Source of the DNA: an uncultured Roseburia sp.
GTDB taxonomy: Bacteria; Bacillota; Clostridia; Lachnospirales; Lachnospiraceae
DNA: 50,900 nt
NCBI GenBank assembly: GCA_945787015.1
Contig: CALZGM010000024.1
Span: 1 to 50,900 of the forward strand
Direction of reading: 5' to 3'
Part shown: in pieces, positions 11,097 through 50,900 of the stretch
How positions within the stretch are numbered: the stretch's first letter is position 1
How the letters are laid out: the number at the start of each line of letters is the position of its first letter
Position numbers and translations under genes: made by a program
Notes under the pieces: generated by a model
The model's database searches: none
The model's input: only the letters and a program-made list of their open reading frames with translations
Told to the model about the DNA's origin: nothing

Positions 11097-11106
11097 ATTA
11101 ATGTAA

Positions 11107-11178
11107 GCTGCTGACGGGAATCGGACCCGTGACCTCCGCCTTACCAAGGCGACGCTCTACCGACTGAGCCACAGCAGC
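11107..11178 (-). tRNA. tRNA-Thr (anticodon GGT)
   Basis: On the minus strand the 72-base sequence folds as a full cloverleaf: acceptor arms GCTGCTG/CAGCAGC, D arm GCTC..GAGC, anticodon stem TCGCC/GGCGG with loop TTGGTAA giving anticodon GGT, and a T arm ACGGG with the TTCGAAT-type loop written GTCCGATTCCCGT. The 3' CCA is not encoded. The flank beyond its 3' end carries broken, mobile-type small genes, as is common beside tRNA integration sites. Confidence 0.95.
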
Positions 11179-13118: not shown

Positions 13119-13825
13119 AGAATGCAGAATATCACATTTTAGTTGTAGAAGATGATAAAGAAATCCGGGACGGTATTGAAATTTTCCTGAAAAGTCAGGG
13201 CTATCAGGTACATAAGGCAGCAGACGGAATCGAAGGATTAGAAGAAATGGAAAAAAATGAAATTCATTTGGCAATCGTAGACATTATGATGCCGCGTATG
13301 GATGGTGTGACTATGACGATGCGTCTGCGGGAAAAATACGATTTCCCGGTGATTATGCTTTCGGCGAAATCAGAGGAAACAGATAAGGTAATCGGTTTAA
13401 ATATCGGTGCAGATGATTATGTGACAAAACCGTTTACACCATTGGAACTGATGGCAAGGGTGAATTCGCAGCTTCGCCGTTATGTGCGCTTTACGAATAA
13501 AAATGGTGCAGGTGTAAAAACGGAGCGGGTGTATGTGATTGGCGGCCTGGAACTGAACGAAGATACGATGGAATTTACAGTAGATGGTAACCCGGTTAAA
13601 TTAACACCGATTGAATTTAAAATTTTAGCGCTGCTGATGCGTAACGCAGGAAGAGTTTTTTCTTCGGAAGAGATTTATGAGCGTGTCTGGAACGAAAAAG
13701 CAATCAATACAGACACGATTATGGTACATGTAAGGAATATTCGGGATAAAATTGAGATTAACCCGAAGGAACCAAAATATTTAAAGGTGGTGTGGGGCGT
13801 TGGATATAAAATTGAAAAGCAGTAG
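13082..13825 (+). CDS. OmpR/PhoB-family response regulator
   Basis: A receiver domain (ILVVEDDKE acidic pocket, phosphoacceptor Asp67 in AIVDIMMPRMDG, LSAKSEE Thr/Ser switch, and KPFTPLEL with the conserved Lys) is joined to a winged-helix DNA-binding domain (PIEFKILALLMRNAGRVFSS ... VHVRNIRDKIE ... VWGVGYKIE). At 247 residues it is a normal length. An internal ATG at 13106, with AGAGGA 11 bases before it, gives MEPLKNAEYH and may be the true start; the 13082 ATG has only a weak site. It overlaps both the glycosyltransferase before it and the kinase after it, so the pair is co-expressed with the envelope genes. Confidence 0.93.
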   Translation: MDERKSVFMEPLKNAEYHILVVEDDKEIRDGIEIFLKSQGYQVHKAADGIEGLEEMEKNEIHLAIVDIMMPRMDGVTMTMRLREKYDFPVIMLSAKSEETDKVIGLNIGADDYVTKPFTPLELMARVNSQLRRYVRFTNKNGAGVKTERVYVIGGLELNEDTMEFTVDGNPVKLTPIEFKILALLMRNAGRVFSSEEIYERVWNEKAINTDTIMVHVRNIRDKIEINPKEPKYLKVVWGVGYKIEKQ

Positions 13826-16010
13826 AAAGTTAAGAATTACAATTGCAGTAGTGGCGTTGGCAGTAATGGCATTATTGAATGTGTGCTATTTCCCAACGAT
13901 GAACAAAAATGTGGTAAAAACGTATCAGGGAGAACAAAATCTGAACTGGGAGTTGGATTTCGAGTTTTTAAGGGCACTTTATCAGGGGACGCAGGTACTC
14001 TATTATGATCAGATGACGCAGGGAGAGAGTGCCGGATTATCTCCGATGCAGGTCTTTTTGGATACAGAAAAGCTGAATGGAGACAATAGCGACTGGATTA
14101 CAGACTCGTTTGATGACCAGTTTGAAAGTCATGAAGAAAATTTTTATGAATACCGTTACCGGATGAATTATTATGCCACAAATGGCACATTAGAATCGGA
14201 GAATACGGATAAAAATTTAAAGGGTGTACTGGACAAAGCAGCGAAGGCGGCAGCAGAAAAGGAACTGGAGAAGTATTTCAGCAATCTGTGGATTATGCGT
14301 TTTGACGAATATGGCCGTATGCACATTGAGGTTCTAAAATCCGACAATGTGGCAGCGGATGTGTTAATCAAGGCATTTCAGGAAATTGAGGAACAAAATT
14401 CTATTTCCGGGATGTTAGAGCAGGGATTTGGCTTGAAGAATGCACGCTTGGCTGCAAAGGAAGTTAATAATTTTACAATCGTCTATGGAATTGCAGCTGA
14501 CGCAAGCGAGGGGCTGGTAATAGCTGAGGAAGGCTTGGATATTTGGAATTATTATGCGAGTGTGGAAGCGTATGCACTTCCGTTATACTGGCTTATGACC
14601 TTGCTTGTGATAGCATTGGCATTTGTGCTTACCAGCCCGAAAATCTGGACAGATATTACGTCTGTTAATCGAAAAGGAAAATGGTATGTATTGGAACCGG
14701 CAGTTTTAGGTGTTTGCCTGTTTTTATCAGGAGCTTTTTACAGAGGATATGAAGAGGCTATTTATCACATCTATTTAAGTGGATTGACCAGTATTTTTGA
14801 ACTTGGAAATAAAATGAGTTTCGAAGTGGTTATGTACTTACTGCGGTCATGGTTCGCTACATTCCTTGGATTTGGCCTGTTGTATCTTACTGCAGTAGCG
14901 CTTTCACCGGTTCTTACCTTAGGCGTTAGGAAATACATCCGACAGTATAGTTTCCTGTATCAGATTTTTCCGACGATGAAGAAATGGTGGGAAAAGTTTA
15001 AGGACGAAACAGCACATGTAAATTTTGCGGAAAAGAACACAAAAACCATCATTAAAATTGTGGTGGTTAATGGAATTGCAATTACAATTCTTACCTGTTT
15101 CTGGTTTGTAGGAACCATTGGAGTCATCATTTACAGCCTGATTTTATTTTGGGCACTGATGAAATACTATGAAAAGATTTCAAAGGATTATAAAGTCCTG
15201 ATGAAGGCAACCAATCGTATCGCAGAAGGGGATCTGGATACAGAAATCACAGAAGATATCGGTGTATTTGAACCAATGAAGGGTGAACTCACCAAGATTC
15301 GAACCGGCTTTAAGAAGGCGGTAGATGAGGAAATCAAGAGCCAGAGAATGAAGACAGAATTAATTACAAACGTCTCTCATGATTTAAAAACACCTTTGAC
15401 AGCAATTACTACCTATGTGGAACTGTTGAAAAAAGAGGATCTTACAGAGGAAGAACGAAAAGAGTACATTGATACGTTAGAGCGGAAGTCCTTGCGTTTG
15501 AAAGTTTTAATTGAAGATTTGTTTGAGGTAAGTAAGGCAACCAGCAATAATATTACGTTAAATCTGATGAAGGTAGATCTTGTAAAACTTTTAAAGCAGG
15601 TGTCCATCGAGCACACGGAAAAATTAGAAGCAGCGGGAATGGATCTGCGTTGGAATGTTCCAAGTGAAAAGGTGGAACTGATGCTTGACAGCCAGAAGAC
15701 TTATCGCGTATTTGAAAACCTGTTTGTGAATCTGCAGAAATATGCAATGCCGAACAGTCGTATCTACATTGATGTTACAGAGAATCAGAATGAAGTAGTG
15801 GTAGTGATAAAGAATATGTCAGCTGCACCTCTAAACGTGGCACCTGAAGAACTGACCGAACGGTTTGTCAGAGGAGATGCTTCCAGAAATACGGAAGGTT
15901 CCGGACTTGGGCTTGCCATTGCAAAGAGTTTCACCGAGGCCCAGAAAGGGAAATTTGAAGTTGCGGTGGACGGTGACTTGTTTAAGACCATCTTGAGGTG
16001 GGAGAAATAG
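13800..16010 (+). CDS. Sensor histidine kinase with several membrane helices
   Basis: A 736-residue kinase partnering the upstream regulator. An N-terminal helix (about 12-28) and a long extracytoplasmic segment (30-255) are followed by about four more helices (260-280, 300-318, 350-378, 415-448). Then come a HAMP-like region (IAEGDLDTEITED), HisKA with His527 in NVSHDLKTPLTAI, and an ATPase domain. The ATPase has an N-box-like stretch (FENLFVNLQKYA) and GSGLGLAIAKS, but the DxGxG box is not recognisable: IKNMSAAPLN and RFVRGDASRN replace it, as in a subset of clostridial kinases I recall. The start is TTG 13800, overlapping the regulator by 26 bases. The stop codon TAG abuts a large palindromic element. 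Confidence 0.88.
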   Translation: MDIKLKSSRKLRITIAVVALAVMALLNVCYFPTMNKNVVKTYQGEQNLNWELDFEFLRALYQGTQVLYYDQMTQGESAGLSPMQVFLDTEKLNGDNSDWITDSFDDQFESHEENFYEYRYRMNYYATNGTLESENTDKNLKGVLDKAAKAAAEKELEKYFSNLWIMRFDEYGRMHIEVLKSDNVAADVLIKAFQEIEEQNSISGMLEQGFGLKNARLAAKEVNNFTIVYGIAADASEGLVIAEEGLDIWNYYASVEAYALPLYWLMTLLVIALAFVLTSPKIWTDITSVNRKGKWYVLEPAVLGVCLFLSGAFYRGYEEAIYHIYLSGLTSIFELGNKMSFEVVMYLLRSWFATFLGFGLLYLTAVALSPVLTLGVRKYIRQYSFLYQIFPTMKKWWEKFKDETAHVNFAEKNTKTIIKIVVVNGIAITILTCFWFVGTIGVIIYSLILFWALMKYYEKISKDYKVLMKATNRIAEGDLDTEITEDIGVFEPMKGELTKIRTGFKKAVDEEIKSQRMKTELITNVSHDLKTPLTAITTYVELLKKEDLTEEERKEYIDTLERKSLRLKVLIEDLFEVSKATSNNITLNLMKVDLVKLLKQVSIEHTEKLEAAGMDLRWNVPSEKVELMLDSQKTYRVFENLFVNLQKYAMPNSRIYIDVTENQNEVVVVIKNMSAAPLNVAPEELTERFVRGDASRNTEGSGLGLAIAKSFTEAQKGKFEVAVDGDLFKTILRWEK

Positions 16011-16321
16011 ATATTTAGTTCATTAATTGGATTTTTTAAAGTGTATATCAGAGAAAAAGAGAGGCTTCCTATTTTCTTTCTTCGGATGTATGCGTGTAAG
16101 AAGTTCTATTATCCATATATATAAGTTTTCTATTGTTTACGCGCCGCATCGTAGCGGAGTCCATTCCGCACGATGCTGAAAATGACGTCCTGTCATTTTC
16201 GCGCTGTATACTGAAATATGGATAAAGAACTTCTAACGCGCTCCCAAACGAAAAAGGAAATTAGGAAGCCTCTCTTTTTCTCTCATTTACACTTTGAAAA
16301 ACAATTACTGTAGCTAAATAT
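16011..16321. repeat. Large palindromic element, copy 1 (ATATTTAGT-ended, type I)
   Basis: The 311 bases begin ATATTTAGTTCA and end with the complement of ATATTTAGCTACA. About 105 bases on each side pair with each other at roughly 80 percent identity (for example AGAGAAAAAGAGAGGCTTCC on the left and its exact complement near 16268-16287). The middle holds two smaller hairpins: GCATCGT...ACGATGC (16146-16176) and GAAAATGAC...GTCATTTTC (16179-16200), enclosed by GCGC/GCGC, so as RNA or extruded DNA it would form a branched structure. It starts directly after the kinase stop TAG. No ORF of note is inside. A related copy is at 28939-29242. Confidence 0.85.
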
Positions 16322-16353
16322 AAGCTTTCGGGGCTTACAAAGCTTTAAAAGAT

Positions 16354-16522
16354 ATATTTAGTGCAGAATTTGAATTGATTCTTTTTCGCTTTCTCGCATG
16401 ATATCTGCGGAACTTATGCCGTCAAGGCCAAGCCAAGTTGCTGTGCAACCTTGACGGCACAAATTCCGCAGATAAAATATAAGAAAGCGAAAAAGAATCA
16501 AATTAAATTCTGTACTAAATAT
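16354..16522. repeat. Palindromic element, type II (ATATTTAGT-ended)
   Basis: The 169 bases are bounded by ATATTTAGTGCAGAATTTGA and the complement of ATATTTAGTACAGAATTT. Arms pair over most of their length: GATTCTTTTTCGCTTTCT with its complement, ATCTGCGGAA with TTCCGCAGAT, and GCCGTCAAGG with CCTTGACGGC, leaving a loop of about 20 bases (16427-16447). The right end lies four bases from the stop codon of the convergent ECF gene, again with TAG next to it. Together with the preceding element and the 32 bases between them (which contain AAGCTT/AAAGCTTT) it fills the whole 516-base gap between two convergent genes. Its terminus recurs at 50491. Confidence 0.85.
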
Positions 16523-16526
16523 CTAT

Positions 16527-17030
16527 TTAATCATTCTTAACAATCTTCTGCAAAATTGGAAGAAGAATCGTAGAAATAATCAATCCTGACAATCCTTGCA
16601 TAAGGTTAGCAGGTACGCTTGCCAATGCAGCGCTTCCGTAAATGAAGAATTCAAAGAACAGATAGCCTAAAGCAACCATAAGGGTAGAGTAAATACCACA
16701 AAGGATGCATTTGACAATGGAGTTATGTAAGTTTTTAGCCAGCTTGTGATAAATGAGACCAACGCCGCCTGCGATGACTGCTTTTACAATCAGCGTGATT
16801 GGTACGTAGATAAAATATCCACCCAGTAAATCTGCAAGCGCAGAGCCGATTCCACCTGCAAGAGCACCATAAACCGGTCCTAAAAGAATGCCGGAAAGTA
16901 CGACAAAGGCATCACCTAAATGTACATAGCCGCCGGTTCCGGGAGTTGGGAGTTTAATAATCATAGTTGCGATACAGCAAAGTGCCATAAATAAGGCAGT
17001 TGTAGTGAGTTTTTTAATATTATTGTTCAT
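16527..17030 (-). CDS. ECF transporter S component
   Basis: A 167-residue substrate-binding membrane subunit for an energy-coupling-factor vitamin transporter. Six hydrophobic segments are visible, with the family text KKLTTTALFMALCCIATMII near the N-terminus and GGYVHLGDAFVVLSGILLGP in the middle (the ECF-ribofla_trS type family). AAAGGA before ATG 17030 decides the start; an upstream in-frame ATG at 17051 lacks a site. No EcfA/EcfT genes are in the window, so it probably shares a common energising module (group II ECF). The substrate is not determined; direct repeats upstream hint at MocR/PdxR-type control and hence vitamin B6, but this is weak. Confidence 0.82.
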   Translation of the reverse strand: MNNNIKKLTTTALFMALCCIATMIIKLPTPGTGGYVHLGDAFVVLSGILLGPVYGALAGGIGSALADLLGGYFIYVPITLIVKAVIAGGVGLIYHKLAKNLHNSIVKCILCGIYSTLMVALGYLFFEFFIYGSAALASVPANLMQGLSGLIISTILLPILQKIVKND

Positions 17031-17102
17031 AATGATTCCTTTCTTTTGCATATTATCAATTTATATTTCGCGTTTTATCATACTCGTTATGTGGATATGT
17101 TA

Positions 17103-26524: not shown

Positions 26525-28966
26525 ATGTTTTTTAGAAAGAGACGGGAGCAGCAGGAGCAGGCATTGCGTATCCGGGACCTTTACCGGAAAATTTTAGATG
26601 AGACGCAGACTGCTGTTGTAGCTTATGATATGAAAACCGGTGAGATTTTTTATGCAAATGAACCGCTAAAGCGTATCTATGGAGTAGAGGGAGATCTGGA
26701 GAATCTTTCCCCTGATTCCGCACTGATACGTGAACGCGGTGCAAAACATTTGGATCTTGATTACATAGCACTGAAAAACGGAGCCAGTAACGAAGCAATT
26801 GAATATCATGAATCCGGCCGCATCTATCAGGTAAAGGGAAAGATTATCGACTGGAACGGGCGGGAAGCTTATCTGGAATATTTGTTTGATATCACAGACA
26901 GTAAGCGTTTTAACGAGCAGCTGCAGTTAGAACACGAGGAGCTTCAGAGAAAGTATCAGGAAGAAATGCTTTATCGGGAGAAGTCTGTTTCGGATGATGT
27001 GATTGCATCCAGCCGTATTAACCTTTCCCACGGCTATATTGAGGAGATGCGTGTTGGAAAGAAGGATGGTTACGAGGAAAAATATCACTATGCTGCAGAT
27101 TTGATATCAAGAATTGTGGCGTTTACGAATGAGGTATGGCTGACAGAAGAACAGAACATGAATATGTCAACACCGATTATGCTGCGTCGCTATTTGCAGG
27201 GGGAACGCAGCTTTTCAGAAGAATATATGGCAGAACTGAAGGACGGCCGGCATGTATGGCTCAGAACAGAAGCGAAGCTGGTGCAGCGCCCTGAAACAGC
27301 GGAAATTATTGCATTCTGTTACAGCAGGGATATTACTCACGAAAAGGTTCTGACGGGTATTTTGGAATGTATTATGTCCTTTGATTATGATGAAATTTTT
27401 ACGGTGGATGTTACAAATGGACAGATTTCACTGGTGGCAACCGGGCGTTATGTCATGGATGAACAGGTGGAGGGCGGTTTATATGAACAGGAAGTTGACA
27501 ATCTGATTTCACGTATTCATTCCGAGGCAGATGCAAAGCGGATAGAAAACGAATTAAAAATTGAGAACATTTTGGTGAATCTGCAAAAGGACCCGGTATA
27601 TATTACAGAGGTGGCAATGCTTTCCAAAAACGGCAAGTCACGTTTGAAACAGTTGCGTTTTATTTATTTGAATGAGACGATGGGAACACTGCTTTTTACC
27701 ATTACCGATATTGATGATATGGTACAGGCGGAAAAGCAGAAGCAGGAGGAATTGGAAAATGCTCTGCAGGTGGCAGAAGAGGCAAACGATACGAAAATGC
27801 GGTTTCTTGCCAATATGAGTCATGAGATTCGAACGCCAATGAATGTAATCATTGGTCTGGCGTCAATTATTCGCGAGGAGTCTGCAAATCAGCAGAAGGT
27901 GTTGGAAAGTACAGAACGTTTAGAGGCAACCTCTAAATATCTGCTGTCTTTATTAAATGACGTTCTGGATATGTCCAGGGTGGAAAATGGAAGTGTAAGC
28001 TTAAGTAAGCAGGAGTTTTCTATGGACCAGTACTGGCAGACTGTGAATACGCTTGCAGAATCACAGTCCAAAGCGGCAGGTGTATCCTATCTGTTTGAGC
28101 AGGAGGCGGGTATACAGAAGGCCTATATAGGGGATGTTGTAAGACTGCAGCAGATTTTGATTAATTTGATTAACAATGCGATTAAGTTTACTCCTTCGGG
28201 CGGTACTGTGACGGTACGCGCGAAACAGTTGGAAACTGTGAACCGGCGGGTAAGGCTTCAAATGCAGGTAGAGGATACCGGTATTGGTATTTCGAAAGAA
28301 TTTTTGCCGAAGGTATTTCAGGCATTTACGCAGGAACATGATGCAGCGACCAGTTCTTACGGAGGAAGCGGACTTGGACTTTCCATTGCGAAAAATTTTG
28401 CAAGAATGATGGGCGGTGATATTACCGTTATCAGTGAAGAAGGAGTCGGAACGACTTTTACCGTGGAGGTATGGCTTGATTTGACAGCTGCATCAGATCA
28501 AATGGAGGACATCGAACTTCCGATGGATAAAACGGATTTCTTCCTTGGAAAGAAGATTCTGCTGGTGGAAGACCACCCGCTAAATGCCATGGTTGCAAAA
28601 CGTTTGCTTGAGAAGCAGAAAATGGAAGTATTCCATGCAGATGATGGGAAAAAGGCGCTTAATCTTTTTGAAGAGAGTGAAGAAGGTACATTTGATGCCA
28701 TTCTGATGGATGTTCGAATGCCGGTCATGGATGGAATTACAGCCACGAAAAAGATTCGTGCCTTACAGCGTGAGGATGCGAAAACCATTCCGATTATTGC
28801 TATGACAGCGAATGCGTTTGATGAGGACAAGAAGCACACCTATGAAGCCGGAATGAATGCACATCTGGCGAAACCGATTGAACCAAGAATGTTGTATGAT
28901 ACGCTTGCGCAGCAGTTACTTGGAAAGAAAAGAAATAGATATTTAGTCCAAAATTTGAATTTATAG
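26525..28966 (+). CDS. Hybrid sensor histidine kinase with PAS and receiver domains
   Basis: An 813-residue soluble kinase. PAS-like sensing domains occupy the N-terminal half (first at about 15-100, DETQTAVVAYDMKTGEIFYA). HisKA follows with His433 in FLANMSHEIRTPMN, then an ATPase with N box LINLINNAIKF, G1 EDTGIGIS and G2 GSGLGLSIAKN, and a C-terminal receiver with EDHPL, phosphoacceptor Asp729 in ILMDVRMP and the conserved Lys in LAKPIEP. No membrane helix is predicted. The start codon has no clear Shine-Dalgarno. The last residues (about NRYLVQNLNL) are read from the left end of a palindromic repeat element rather than from kinase-type sequence: TAG at the element boundary is out of frame here. 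The output partner is not evident. Confidence 0.9.
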   Translation: MFFRKRREQQEQALRIRDLYRKILDETQTAVVAYDMKTGEIFYANEPLKRIYGVEGDLENLSPDSALIRERGAKHLDLDYIALKNGASNEAIEYHESGRIYQVKGKIIDWNGREAYLEYLFDITDSKRFNEQLQLEHEELQRKYQEEMLYREKSVSDDVIASSRINLSHGYIEEMRVGKKDGYEEKYHYAADLISRIVAFTNEVWLTEEQNMNMSTPIMLRRYLQGERSFSEEYMAELKDGRHVWLRTEAKLVQRPETAEIIAFCYSRDITHEKVLTGILECIMSFDYDEIFTVDVTNGQISLVATGRYVMDEQVEGGLYEQEVDNLISRIHSEADAKRIENELKIENILVNLQKDPVYITEVAMLSKNGKSRLKQLRFIYLNETMGTLLFTITDIDDMVQAEKQKQEELENALQVAEEANDTKMRFLANMSHEIRTPMNVIIGLASIIREESANQQKVLESTERLEATSKYLLSLLNDVLDMSRVENGSVSLSKQEFSMDQYWQTVNTLAESQSKAAGVSYLFEQEAGIQKAYIGDVVRLQQILINLINNAIKFTPSGGTVTVRAKQLETVNRRVRLQMQVEDTGIGISKEFLPKVFQAFTQEHDAATSSYGGSGLGLSIAKNFARMMGGDITVISEEGVGTTFTVEVWLDLTAASDQMEDIELPMDKTDFFLGKKILLVEDHPLNAMVAKRLLEKQKMEVFHADDGKKALNLFEESEEGTFDAILMDVRMPVMDGITATKKIRALQREDAKTIPIIAMTANAFDEDKKHTYEAGMNAHLAKPIEPRMLYDTLAQQLLGKKRNRYLVQNLNL

Positions 28967-29242
28967 TTTCGTATATTGAGGAAGAGAGAAAGAGACTGAC
29001 TTTTTTCTATTCGGATGTACACATATAAGAAGTTCTATTATCCATATATATAAGTTTTCTATTGTTTACGCGCCGCATCGTGCGGAATGGACTCCGCTAC
29101 GATGCGGCGCGTAAGCTTTCGATGACTTACACATAGGAATGTTAGAGTTTCTTATACATGTATGACCGCATATAAAAATAAAGGTTCCTCTTTTTTCTTA
29201 CAAATTTATATTATGCCTAAAATAATTTACTGAACAAAATAT
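28939..29242. repeat. Large palindromic element, copy 2 (ATATTTAGT-ended, type I)
   Basis: The 304 bases run from ATATTTAGTCCA to the complement of ATATTTTGTTCA, exactly at the typA stop codon (TAG on the minus strand). The two halves are complementary along most of their length. The centre is a long perfect stem TTACGCGCCGCATCGT / ACGATGCGGCGCGTAA around the tip at 29082-29098. Fifty-six bases (29026-29081) are identical to 16097-16152 in copy 1, whereas the 17-base tip is the exact reverse complement of the tip there. The element overlaps the last 28 bases of the hybrid kinase ORF and fills the gap to typA. Confidence 0.87.
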
Positions 29243-31081
29243 CTATTTCTTCATATTCGCACGTTTTCTTAAAGTAGGATCTAAGATACGTTTTCTGATA
29301 CGGAGACTGGATGGTGTCACCTCCAGTAACTCATCTACGTCGATAAAGTCTAATGCCTGTTCCAAACTTAAAATTTTGGGCGGAACAAGGGTTAAAGCTT
29401 CATCAGCGGAAGAAGAACGGGTATTGGTTAGGTGTTTCTTTTTACATACGTTTAACTCGATATCCTCGTTTCTTGAGCAGGAACCGATTACCATACCTGC
29501 ATATACTTTCTGACCCGGTCCGATGAATAAGGTTCCGCGGTCCTGAGCAGAGAACAAACCGTAAGTAACAGATTCACCGGATTCATAAGCAATTAAGGAA
29601 CCAAGTTTCCGGTAAGAGATGTCACCACGGTAGTAGTCATAGCCGTTGAAAATCGTATTGATGATACCATTTCCTTTTGTATCCGTTAAAAATTCTCCGC
29701 GATAACCGATTAAGCCACGGGACGGAATGTTGAATTCCAAACGGGTGTAGCCGCCGGTAATCGGTTTCATATTAACCAATTCACCTTTTCTCTGGCTTAA
29801 TTTATCAATAACAGTTCCTGTAAATTCATCCGGAACATCGACATAAGCGATTTCCATAGGTTCCATTTTTTTGCCGTTTTCATCGGTATGGTATAAAACT
29901 TCTGCCTTACTTACTGCGAACTCATAACCTTCACGGCGCATGTTCTCAATTAATACAGATAAATGTAACTCACCACGTCCGGACACCTTATAGCTGTCAT
30001 GACTGTCTGTTTCCTCGACACGAAGTGACACGTCGGTGTTTAATTCGCGGAACAGACGGTCTCTTAAGTGGCGGGAGGTGACGTATTTTCCTTCCTGACC
30101 GGCTAACGGGCTGTCGTTTACAATAAAGTTCATAGAAAGGGTTGGCTCCGAAATCTTCTGGAACGGGATGGCAACCGGATTTTCTACAGAACAGATGGTA
30201 TCACCAATGTGAATATCGGAAATACCGGAGATAGCTACGATAGAACCGATACCGGCTTCCGTAACTTCTACCTTATTTAAACCGTCAAACTCGTATAACT
30301 TACTGATGCGGACTTTTTTCTGCTTGTCAGGGTCATGATGGTTTACTACCACTGCGTCCTGATTTACTTTGATAACGCCATTGTCTACTTTTCCAACACC
30401 GATACGGCCAACATATTCATTGTAGTCGATGGTGCTGATGAGTACCTGTGTCGGAGCTTCCGGATCTCCTTCCGGTGCCGGAATGTAGTCGAGGATGGTT
30501 TCAAATAATGGAACCATATTCTTGCCACCGTTTACTAAATCCAAGATTTCACGAACAGCATATCCGTCTCTTGCAGATGCAAATAAGAACGGGCAGTCTA
30601 ACTGCTCATCGGAAGCATCCAAATCCATAAATAATTCCAACACCTCGTCAACTACTTCGTTTGGACGAGCTTCCGGACGGTCAACTTTATTGACACAGAC
30701 GATAACCGGAAGGTTTAATTCCAACGCCTTCATTAATACGAATTTGGTCTGTGGCATAACGCCCTCAAAAGCGTCTACCACTAAAATGACACCATTTACC
30801 ATTTTAAGGACACGTTCTACTTCACCGCCGAAGTCTGCATGGCCCGGAGTATCAATAATGTTAATCTTTACTCCTTTATAAGTGATGGCAGTATTCTTAG
30901 CGAGAATAGTGATACCGCGTTCTCGCTCGATATCATTAGAGTCCATGACACGTTCCTGCACTTCCTGATTTTCACGGAATACGCCGCTTTGTTTTAAAAG
31001 CTCATCGACCAGAGTTGTTTTACCATGGTCAACATGAGCGATGATTGCTATGTTACGTACATCTTCACGTTTTGTTCTCAT
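29243..31081 (-). CDS. typA: Ribosome-associated GTPase TypA/BipA
   Basis: A 612-residue translational GTPase of the EF-G-like superfamily, involved in ribosome assembly and stress adaptation. G1 is AHVDHGKTT (15-23), the switch region is RERGITI, G3 is DTPGHADFGG and G4 is NKVDRPEA. Domains II, III, V and the TypA-specific C-terminal domain follow (SRGLIGYRGEFLTDTKGNG, and the C-terminal LDFIDVDELLEVTPSSLRIR). GAGG precedes ATG 31081; the in-frame ATG at 31093 has no site. The TAG stop abuts the palindromic element. Confidence 0.97.
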   Translation of the reverse strand: MRTKREDVRNIAIIAHVDHGKTTLVDELLKQSGVFRENQEVQERVMDSNDIERERGITILAKNTAITYKGVKINIIDTPGHADFGGEVERVLKMVNGVILVVDAFEGVMPQTKFVLMKALELNLPVIVCVNKVDRPEARPNEVVDEVLELFMDLDASDEQLDCPFLFASARDGYAVREILDLVNGGKNMVPLFETILDYIPAPEGDPEAPTQVLISTIDYNEYVGRIGVGKVDNGVIKVNQDAVVVNHHDPDKQKKVRISKLYEFDGLNKVEVTEAGIGSIVAISGISDIHIGDTICSVENPVAIPFQKISEPTLSMNFIVNDSPLAGQEGKYVTSRHLRDRLFRELNTDVSLRVEETDSHDSYKVSGRGELHLSVLIENMRREGYEFAVSKAEVLYHTDENGKKMEPMEIAYVDVPDEFTGTVIDKLSQRKGELVNMKPITGGYTRLEFNIPSRGLIGYRGEFLTDTKGNGIINTIFNGYDYYRGDISYRKLGSLIAYESGESVTYGLFSAQDRGTLFIGPGQKVYAGMVIGSCSRNEDIELNVCKKKHLTNTRSSSADEALTLVPPKILSLEQALDFIDVDELLEVTPSSLRIRKRILDPTLRKRANMKK

Positions 31082-31131
31082 AAATGTCCTCATTTCTTAT
31101 TAAAACAAACTTATTGTTGCTCAACTAGCCT

Positions 31132-31956: not shown

Positions 31957-31974
31957 TTATGAAAATAAATAGTT

Positions 31975-32203
31975 GATAGAGGTTGCGTGATTTATCAGTA
32001 GCAGGTTGGATGCCGCAGGGGCAGAAGAAGATTTGTGAAAGGGGAGAACGCCGAAAGGACACATACCTGTAACTGTGTTACTTGGGCATAAGGTGAAGAA
32101 TCTTATGACTGTCATCTTTTAGATGGGGAGCTATCGGTTTCATATTTAATGATTGTAGCTACTGGCTGTAAAAACAGCTAAAGCTGTATGTTAGAATATT
32201 TAG
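31975..32203 (+). promoter_or_regulatory. Lysine riboswitch (L box)
   Basis: The leader has the conserved lysine-aptamer blocks in order: GATAGAGGTTGCG (31975-31987) with its P1 partner CTATC (32131-32135), GTGATTTATCAGTAGC, GTGAAAGGGGAGAACGCCGA (about 32034-32053), CTTGGGCATAAGG, and GGGGAGCTATC. It controls dapA-dapB, the lysine/diaminopimelate branch, exactly the expected target. Lysine binding should favour the downstream terminator and so switch the genes off. Identification rests on primary-sequence blocks and pairing that I could see. Confidence 0.93.
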
Positions 32204-50487: not shown

Positions 50488-50490
50488 GGG

Positions 50491-50842
50491 TATTTAGTGC
50501 AGAATTTGATTTGAATTCTTTTTCGCTTTTTATGTAAATTCTTTGATTTTAGTGCCCTCATATGGTTTTTCTGATTTAAAAAGTATCTATAGAGATTTTT
50601 TTATCTTCCAGGAACTTTTTGTGTAGTTATGTAAACCATTGCAGCCTTATTTCGTATCTAAAAGTTACTATACAGAAAAATTCAACTCCAAGGAACCTAT
50701 TTTTAGAGATTTCGGTTCCTGACGCATCAATTTTTTTGTATAGTAACTTTTTCCGCTATTTTTAAGGAAATTTTGCTGCTTTTTCTTTAAAAAAGTTTCT
50801 AGGAACTCTATTTTTTTCTATAGTAACTTTAATGAGCGGAAG
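50491..50842. repeat. AT-rich repeat region with a half of a type II palindromic element
   Basis: The region starts right after the GGDEF-EAL stop with TATTTAGTGCAGAATTTGAT and then TTCTTTTTCGCTTTTTATG, matching the left arm of the element at 16354, but no complementary right arm follows. Instead there are short repeats of the type GGAACyTwTTTTT and CTATAGTAACTTT. No gene is seen in the 413 bases from 50488 to the window end. Confidence 0.7.
50660..50751. repeat. Nested inverted repeat inside the 50.5-kb repeat region
   Basis: AAAAGTTACTATACAGAAAA at the left pairs with its complement at the right (one mismatch), enclosing AAGGAACC ... GGTTCCT. A third, direct copy of the right arm (TATTTTTTTCTATAGTAACTTT) lies at 50808-50829. 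Confidence 0.75.
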
Positions 50843-50845
50843 GGG

Positions 50846-50900
50846 TATTTAGTCCAATAAATTATTTTGACATAAAGTAATTGCACAATAAGAAAGAGTA
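50846..50900. repeat. Start of a further ATATTTAGT-type element, cut by the window end
   Basis: TATTTAGTCCAATAAATTAT matches the right terminus of the element at 28939-29242 read in reverse (TATTTTGTTCAGTAAATTAT). It is preceded by GGGG, as is the terminus at 50491. Confidence 0.55.

What the first reader, a model, noticed from the sequence alone, without database searches (positions are those of the whole stretch)
16011..16321. Undescribed-looking family of giant palindromic elements ending in ATATTTAGTnCA
Copies at 16011-16321 and 28939-29242 are 300-310 bp, close to full-length inverted repeats, share a 56-base identical core, and share the terminal motif with a shorter element at 16354-16522 and with ends at 50491 and 50846. 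Length, branched internal hairpins and lack of an ORF are more than a terminator needs; they could be non-autonomous mobile elements (MITE-like), RNA-structured terminators, or protein-binding sites. I cannot match them to a named family.
Basis: partly seen in the sequence, partly recalled or inferred. Interest (0 to 1): 0.78.

Follow-up and report, generated by a model that had tools for sequence, protein, structure and literature searches.

The report
Flipping DNA palindromes carrying CsrA-decoy hairpins
A bacterium related to Roseburia carries many scattered copies of a long mirror-image DNA element whose centre folds into paired RNA hairpins that look like docking sites for the regulator CsrA, and whose centre flips in place in the chromosome; the core was known as an orphan RNA motif, but the element, its flipping and its link to CsrA-bearing genomes were worked out here.

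Summary
In detail: elements 1 (16011-16321), 2 (28939-29242) and 3 (16354-16522) are real, extreme palindromes (fold z -17.8, -10.9, -15.4) that share ends and, for 1 and 2, a 56-base core. They are not wholly undescribed: the centre of element 1 is Rfam RF01731, TwoAYGGAY, in the clan of E. coli CsrB; a 2014 paper proposed CsrA binding. Elements 2 and 3 do not reach that model. New here: (1) the motif is the centre of a 250-310 bp palindromic repeat, 14 matches in this genome, 38 in a complete relative; (2) 154 of 170 hairpin loops keep GGA while stems change compensatorily, G-U favoured over A-C on one strand; outer arms show no overall strand preference; (3) centres invert in place (6 of 22 shared sites between two close species; the 17-base apex between elements 1 and 2) and arms change together, marks of template switching; (4) among 250 genera of the family, 38 of 39 with the motif have CsrA against 88 of 211 without. 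Best reading: dispersed CsrA-decoy RNA elements in template-switching palindromes. Binding and transcription are untested; how copies spread is unknown.

The parts
16011..16321 (-). Element 1: palindromic element; TwoAYGGAY sense is the minus strand
16085..16248 (-). Rfam RF01731 TwoAYGGAY core, 103.3 bits (gathering 43)
16178..16200 (-). Core hairpin 1, loop AGGAC on the minus strand (pentaloop with GGA)
16146..16176 (-). Core hairpin 2, loop AUGGAC on the minus strand (hexaloop); 25 nt between the two GGAs
16097..16152 (+). 56-base arm identical to 29026-29081; the 17 bases that follow are the exact reverse complement of those in element 2
16354..16522 (.). Element 3: 169-bp palindrome with the same ends but a different interior; no GGA in its apical loop (my reading of the fold)
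28939..29242 (+). Element 2: palindromic element filling the gap between two convergent genes; single apical hairpin
29087..29092 (+). AUGGAC loop of element 2, at the apex, on the plus strand
50490..50845 (+). Left end of an element-3-like copy (TATTTAGTGCA) followed by a different segment with inverted AGTAACTTT repeats
50845..50900 (+). Left end of a further element that runs off the contig

Best explanation
The elements are dispersed non-coding repeats. In the main kind (element 1) a long palindrome presents, on one strand, two neighbouring RNA hairpins whose loops carry GGA, the geometry that a CsrA dimer binds; when a copy is transcribed its RNA titrates CsrA, beside the FliW-CsrA protein switch that this genome also encodes. 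The palindromic arms are a separate layer: replication template switching between the arms keeps the two arms of each copy matched although copies differ from one another, and flips the centre in place, so that orientation to neighbouring genes is not conserved. SHOWN: the palindromes, copy number, GGA loops, stem covariation, strand asymmetry in the hairpins, inversions, concerted arm changes, co-occurrence with CsrA. INFERRED: transcription, CsrA binding, titration, template switching as the molecular cause. UNKNOWN: how copies disperse; what the GGA-less kind (element 3) does.
For: Core of element 1 = RF01731, Rfam clan CL00106; E. coli csrB falls in the same clan. 154 of 170 hairpin loops (85 of 99 copies; the 14 copies in which two hairpins were not found were dropped) hold GGA, 91 of 105 distinct hairpins. 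In 43 aligned cores G62 A63 and G90 G91 A92 are invariant. Hairpin stems on that alignment: 97.0% of cells paired, 143 two-sided changes against 42 in shuffles, score 0.720 against 0.171, 0 of 500. Strand asymmetry: G-U 14, A-C 2 in 84 distinct GGA hairpins with fixed 7-bp stems, one-sided P 0.002; G-U 12, A-C 0 on the alignment (my count). Outer arms: 154 G-U, 138 A-C in 99 copies (my sums). Inversion: 6 of 22 G014/G016 pairs (alignments of 3 of the 6 read) and elements 1/2 in the window. Concerted arm changes: 13 in 21 pairs against 76 single ones (one pair with a replaced element dropped; 4 of the 13 lie in one pair). CsrA: 37 of 38 motif-bearing genomes plus G000, against 88 of 211 motif-free ones (taken to be the same draw; Fisher 6.5e-12). 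fliW-csrA pair in this genome.
Against: No transcript data. The motif's sense strand is not tied to neighbouring genes: 29 copies in sense and 24 antisense between co-directional genes, and promoter-like sites in the window's elements are no more than in shuffles, so it is not shown that the GGA strand is transcribed. The co-occurrence test has no phylogenetic correction, and the absences of the motif rest on stricter Infernal filters with 10 candidates scored per genome; one motif-bearing genome (G251, 93% complete) has no CsrA match. The outer-arm ratio is uneven: G016 alone favours G-U 74:34, G004 favours A-C 17:44, G014 40:33, G000 23:27, which does not fit simple neutrality of strand. 16 of 170 loops lack GGA, 3 of them among the 13 first hairpins of this genome. 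G014 is a draft: some inversions could be assembly errors. Element 3 has no GGA loop; element 2 has one hairpin only; hairpin 1 of element 1 has a five-base loop.
Confidence: 0.52

Rival explanations
1. Selfish non-autonomous mobile element (MITE/REP-like): ends are recognised by a transposase supplied in trans; hairpins are recognition structures and there is no host function.
For: Ends shared by different interiors; copies 94, 96 and 99% identical to element 1 in flanks unlike its own; patchy presence, 12 of 36 genomes of the genus and 39 of 250 genera; composite units with two copies in inverted orientation; 14 of 36 G016 elements had no partner among the G014 elements and were not followed, so gains there are possible; at 40:5700 a GAAAAT repeat bounds the stretch that G016 lacks.
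Against: No stop-to-stop frame over 66 aa in the two composite units read; no target duplication visible at five copies; of 11 G014 elements without a first-pass partner in G016, 2 are present, 2 partly deleted, 2 gone but with an arm remnant, 2 cleanly absent, 3 unresolved, so in that direction loss is the commoner finding; RNA-type strand asymmetry in the hairpins and the CsrA link are not predicted.
Confidence: 0.25
2. Bidirectional 3'-end structures: the hairpins end or insulate convergent transcription.
For: 24 of 45 element ends read in this genome lie 1-6 bases after a stop codon (no null computed); elements 1+3 and element 2 fill the gaps between convergent genes; of 77 copies left after removing G014 orthologues, 18 lie between convergent and 7 between divergent genes (P 0.04); many relatives have shorter hairpins after typA; both strands fold.
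Against: No terminator-like site with a T tract; 53 of 99 copies lie between co-directional genes and 12 between divergent ones (52 and 13); GGA loops unexplained.
Confidence: 0.13
3. Cis-regulatory RNA of the adjacent gene, as Rfam's type label 'Cis-reg' says.
For: Rfam type label.
Against: No preferred orientation to neighbours, in-place inversions; Weinberg's table marks it probably not cis-regulatory. Conservation of the neighbouring gene was not tested systematically.
Confidence: 0.04
4. DNA-level protein-binding or chromosome-structuring palindrome (cruciform).
For: Outer arms are kept palindromic without an overall RNA strand preference.
Against: Does not explain GGA loops or the strand asymmetry of hairpin stems.
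Confidence: 0.06

Closest known systems
TwoAYGGAY RNA (Rfam RF01731; listed in Weinberg et al. 2010, PMC2864571, table passage seen)
   Same: 14 matches in this genome reach the model, element 1 among them; two hairpins, mostly with GGA loops
   Different: The family model is a 168-position RNA; here it is the centre of a longer, multi-copy, invertible palindromic element; elements 2 and 3 do not match
CsrB/RsmZ-type CsrA-sequestering sRNAs (clan CL00106; proposal for TwoAYGGAY in PMC4333381, passages seen)
   Same: GGA in hairpin loops, Rfam clan, host has CsrA
   Different: Two sites per copy in many dispersed copies instead of one RNA with many sites; expression and binding not shown
Campylobacter flaA leader, a CsrA-titrating mRNA with two adjacent GGA hexaloops, and FliW (PMC4894983, passages seen)
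   Same: Two adjacent GGA loops (spacing given as 21 nt there, 25 nt between the GGAs here), FliW-CsrA setting
   Different: A single leader in one mRNA, not a dispersed repeat
Template-switching inverted repeats: arm homogenisation and spacer inversion (PMC8604942, abstract and passages seen; PMC8794818, search listing only)
   Same: Both signatures seen here
   Different: Outer arms here align over 30-118 bases around cores of about 165 bases, far larger than the yeast cases in the passages seen (spacers of a few bases)
MITEs / REP-BIME elements (recalled, no paper seen)
   Same: Non-coding, dispersed, palindromic, intergenic
   Different: No target duplication seen at five copies and no partner transposase found

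Membership tests
Rfam RF01731 TwoAYGGAY | Score above the gathering threshold | tested here: met
   Element 1: 103.3 vs 43 bits. Element 2 has no RF01731 match up to E 1 and element 3 none at gathering: these two are not members
Rfam RF01731 TwoAYGGAY | Two hairpins with AYGGAY loops | tested here: inconclusive
   Element 1: one AUGGAC hexaloop and one AGGAC pentaloop; over 85 copies 154 of 170 loops hold GGA
CsrA-binding RNA | GGA in hairpin loops, kept while stems covary, with strand asymmetry | tested here: met
CsrA-binding RNA | CsrA present in carriers | tested here: met
   38 of 39 against 88 of 211; not corrected for phylogeny
CsrA-binding RNA | Transcribed and bound by CsrA | not testable with these tools
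   no expression or binding data
MITE | Target-site duplication | tested here: inconclusive
   none visible at five element-1-type copies; a GAAAAT repeat bounds the absent stretch at one of two clean G016 empty sites
MITE | Autonomous element with the same ends | tested here: inconclusive
Intrinsic terminator | G+C-rich stem followed by T tract | tested here: not met
   0 found in 15900-16640 and in 28880-29320
Template-switching inverted repeat | Arm homogenisation and spacer inversion | tested here: met
   13 concerted arm changes in 21 pairs; 6 of 22 pairs inverted; apex inversion in the window. The molecular cause itself was not tested

The most novel reading that the evidence does not exclude
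A class of invertible, self-homogenising palindromes that seeds a genome with CsrA sites: each inversion moves the GGA strand from one neighbour's read-through transcript to the other's, so that tens of loci act as independent, heritable on/off switches of CsrA titration.
Probability: 0.15. Interest if true: 0.85.

Novelty: new variant of a known kind. Interest (0 to 1): 0.6.

Why it matters
It turns an orphan RNA motif into a testable system: a possible CsrA-sequestering RNA outside Gammaproteobacteria, dispersed as many repeats in Roseburia-like bacteria that also have FliW, the protein antagonist of CsrA in Bacillus and Campylobacter (PMC4894983, passages). It also suggests that base-pair covariation can come from DNA-level arm homogenisation: the inner arms and the hairpins covary about equally (scores 0.667 and 0.720), but only the hairpins carry the strand asymmetry that RNA selection should leave. 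That is a useful caution and a simple test for RNA families defined by covariation.

Tried and rejected
Palindromes as ordinary terminators: no T tract. RNA selection on the whole palindrome: outer arms show no overall G-U over A-C preference, though G016 alone does (74:34). Cis-regulatory RNA: no orientation preference. An autonomous carrier: the composite units C6:90682-91811 and C26:7680-8909 hold no stop-to-stop frame over 66 aa. Empty-site proof at the window's own sites: no fetched relative locus beside typA or the ECF gene showed the gene on the other side (the contigs of the nearest relative G021 end at the elements), so G014/G016 was used; only the G014 elements without partner were followed into G016, not the 14 G016 elements without partner in G014. 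Searches for prior description: 'TwoAYGGAY', 7 papers, 5 listed; palindromic/Lachnospiraceae/intergenic, 12 of 859 listed; CsrA sponge/mobile element, 10 of 61 listed; Eubacterium rectale palindromic repeat elements, none: nothing on the element in the listings. Supplements of PMC2864571 could not be read, so an earlier remark there is possible. A first hairpin count scored G-U more kindly than A-C; the recount blind to that is. A first fold-based count of G-U pairs on both strands (79 sense, 89 antisense in 17 copies, my sums) and a first whole-arm count that ran into the core (101 G-U, 49 A-C in 38 rows of G016) were superseded by the outer-arm count.

Full report
THE OBSERVATION. The three palindromes, the shared 56-base core and the shared ends are in the sequence as described. 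Folds are far beyond dinucleotide shuffles: z -17.8, -10.9 and -15.4. Corrections: the ends at 50491 and 50846 point the same way, so they begin two things, the second of which leaves the contig; the right end of element 2 differs by one base from the motif.

SETTING. Element 1 and element 3 together fill the gap between a histidine kinase gene (13800-16010, +) and an ECF riboflavin-type transporter gene (16527-17051, -); element 2 fills the gap between a hybrid histidine kinase (26525-28966, +) and typA/bipA (29243-31093, -); the 50491 end follows a GGDEF-EAL gene. In this genome 24 of 45 distinct element ends with at least 240 bases of flank lie 1-6 bases after the stop of an open frame of 70 or more codons, 11 of them as TAG one base before TATTT. 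No null was computed for this.

IDENTITY. cmscan places RF01731 TwoAYGGAY on the minus strand at 16085-16248 with 103.3 bits. Elements 2 and 3 are not hit. Over the genome 14 matches were found, one of them partial. The Rfam clan CL00106 also holds CsrB, checked with the E. coli csrB locus. A paper of December 2014 proposed from loop matches that TwoAYGGAY RNAs bind CsrA (PMC4333381, passages); Weinberg et al. list the motif as probably RNA and probably not cis-regulatory (PMC2864571, table passage), while Rfam types it Cis-reg.

DISTRIBUTION. RF01731 occurs in 12 of 60 relatives drawn: 12 of 36 of the genus, own genome included, and 0 of 24 of other families; 38 matches in the one-contig genome G016, 33 in G014, 22 in G004, 14 in the own genome. 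In 250 genomes of the family, one per genus, 39 have it, 37 over the cut-off (stricter filters, 10 candidates scored per genome, so a lower bound). A pattern scan of named genomes found the apical hairpin of the window in one uncultured Roseburia sp. MAG, 3 stretches; that the genus is Roseburia-like and the family Lachnospiraceae is inferred from this. G016's length, 3,449,685, recalls the type strain of Eubacterium rectale; that is memory, not a result.

ANATOMY OF THE CORE. I read 99 copies: 36 of 38 in G016 (two partial ones dropped), 33 of 33 in G014, 17 of 22 in G004 (five not fetched) and 13 of 14 in G000 (the partial one dropped). Two hairpins were found in 85; of their 170 loops 154 hold GGA, AUGGAC being the commonest; 91 of 105 distinct hairpins. 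Stem bases vary in matched pairs. On 43 aligned cores (43 of the 95 distinct ones, chosen by me) 33 of 39 predicted pairs show two-sided changes. For the hairpins alone: score 0.720, shuffles 0.171, slid controls at most 0.179. For the inner arms alone: score 0.667, shuffles 0.198, slid controls at most 0.132.

A STRAND TEST. RNA tolerates G-U but not A-C; DNA palindromes are symmetric. In hairpins fixed at 7 bp and chosen by Watson-Crick pairs only: G-U 14, A-C 2. On the alignment: hairpins 12 to 0, inner arms 13 to 20, 13 of the 20 in one column pair (my count of the pair types). In outer arms of the 99 copies: 154 to 138 (sums). The outer-arm ratio is uneven between genomes: 74:34 in G016, 40:33 in G014, 17:44 in G004, 23:27 in G000. 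So the hairpins look selected as RNA on the TwoAYGGAY strand; for the arms there is no consistent preference, although G016 taken alone would suggest one.

INVERSION AND ARM MATCHING. G014 and G016 have element flanks of 85-99.8% identity, mostly above 94%. Of 22 element pairs with matching flanks (20 on both sides, 2 on one side only), in 6 the core is reversed relative to the flanks. I read the alignments of 3 of these 6 and of 4 unreversed pairs: outer arms and flanks stay in register and only the centre is reversed; for instance identity over the core and 40 bases each side is 0.97 in element orientation against 0.65 in flank orientation at 14:35152. The window shows the same on a small scale: after the identical 56 bases the next 17 bases of element 2 are the exact reverse complement of those of element 1, and then ACGATGC follows in both. 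Leaving out one pair whose element was replaced (16:94699), 13 arm positions changed on both sides alike, in 8 of 21 pairs and 4 of them in one pair, and 76 changed on one side, in 841 columns; by my estimate about one such double change or fewer would be expected by chance. Arm homogenisation together with spacer inversion is what template switching between inverted repeats produces (PMC8604942, abstract and passages). Homologous recombination between arms would also invert centres and is not excluded; G014 being a draft, assembly error is not excluded for single cases.

TURNOVER. Eleven G014 elements had no first-pass partner in G016; at those sites G016 has the element in 2, a partial deletion in 2, a remnant of an arm in 2, a clean absence in 2, and 3 stayed unresolved (alignments read for 8). 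So at least 26 of the 33 G014 elements have an element or part of one at the same site in G016, and loss is the commoner explanation there. The 14 G016 elements without partner among the G014 ones were not followed, so recent gain in G016 is open. In the own genome three further copies are 94-99% identical to element 1 with identity ending at the element ends and flanks unlike those of element 1 (two of these copies share their right flank with each other). At the typA site, 2 of the 30 genus loci that I read carry this kind of element (G000 and its near relative G021, where the interior partly differs); G024 has another long palindrome there.

CsrA. CsrA (PF02599) is in 36 of 40 genomes of the genus, so the genus does not discriminate. 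Across the family draw it is in 126 of 250 over cut-off; 37 of 38 motif-bearing genomes plus the own one have it, so 38 of 39 against 88 of 211 by subtraction, being taken as the same draw (same handles); Fisher P 6.5e-12; among good-quality genomes 31 of 32 against 71 of 170, P 1.3e-9. Genera are not independent and no tree correction was possible. The own genome has fliW directly before csrA, and Arg44, known from memory as an RNA contact, is kept in the translation.

AGAINST. Orientation is free: between co-directional genes 29 copies are in sense and 24 antisense. A read-through decoy should prefer sense; a decoy with its own promoter need not, but no promoter stood out. Element 3 and its kin share only the ends and have no GGA loop, so something besides CsrA unites the family, perhaps an unseen mobilising or end-processing activity.

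VERDICT. A known RNA motif, in a form that I found described in none of the listings: dispersed, flipping, self-matching palindromes around a CsrA-type hairpin pair. The CsrA function is likely but unproven; the spread mechanism is open.

Noticed in passing
own genome, contig ends (lengths): By my count at least 28 of the 59 TATTTAGTNCA matches lie within 310 bases of a contig end: the draft assembly tends to break at these palindromes, so copy numbers in drafts are probably too low.
   Followed up: partly
L094 883-2012 and L095 881-2110 (C6:90682-91811, C26:7680-8909): 1.1-1.2 kb non-coding composites with element-3-type palindromes at both ends; by my reading the interior is inverted between the two, and holds GCCGGCGAAAGCCGGC and TTTTTAGGCA hairpins.
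   Followed up: partly
window 50560-50845: Separate segment with inverted AAAGTTACTATA arms; the similar stretch TTCTATAGTAACTTTAATGAG precedes another element end at C41:26883.
   Followed up: no
window 31969-32141: Lysine riboswitch (100 bits), and a tRNA at 11106-11178 (-).
   Followed up: no
L258 2110-2320 (G024): A different palindrome of about 200 bp directly after typA in a genome without RF01731 matches.
   Followed up: no
12 G016 elements, outer arms: Outer arms are copy-specific yet match within each copy, lying between a frequent end motif (GTAAG left, GTACG right) and the shared core.
   Followed up: partly
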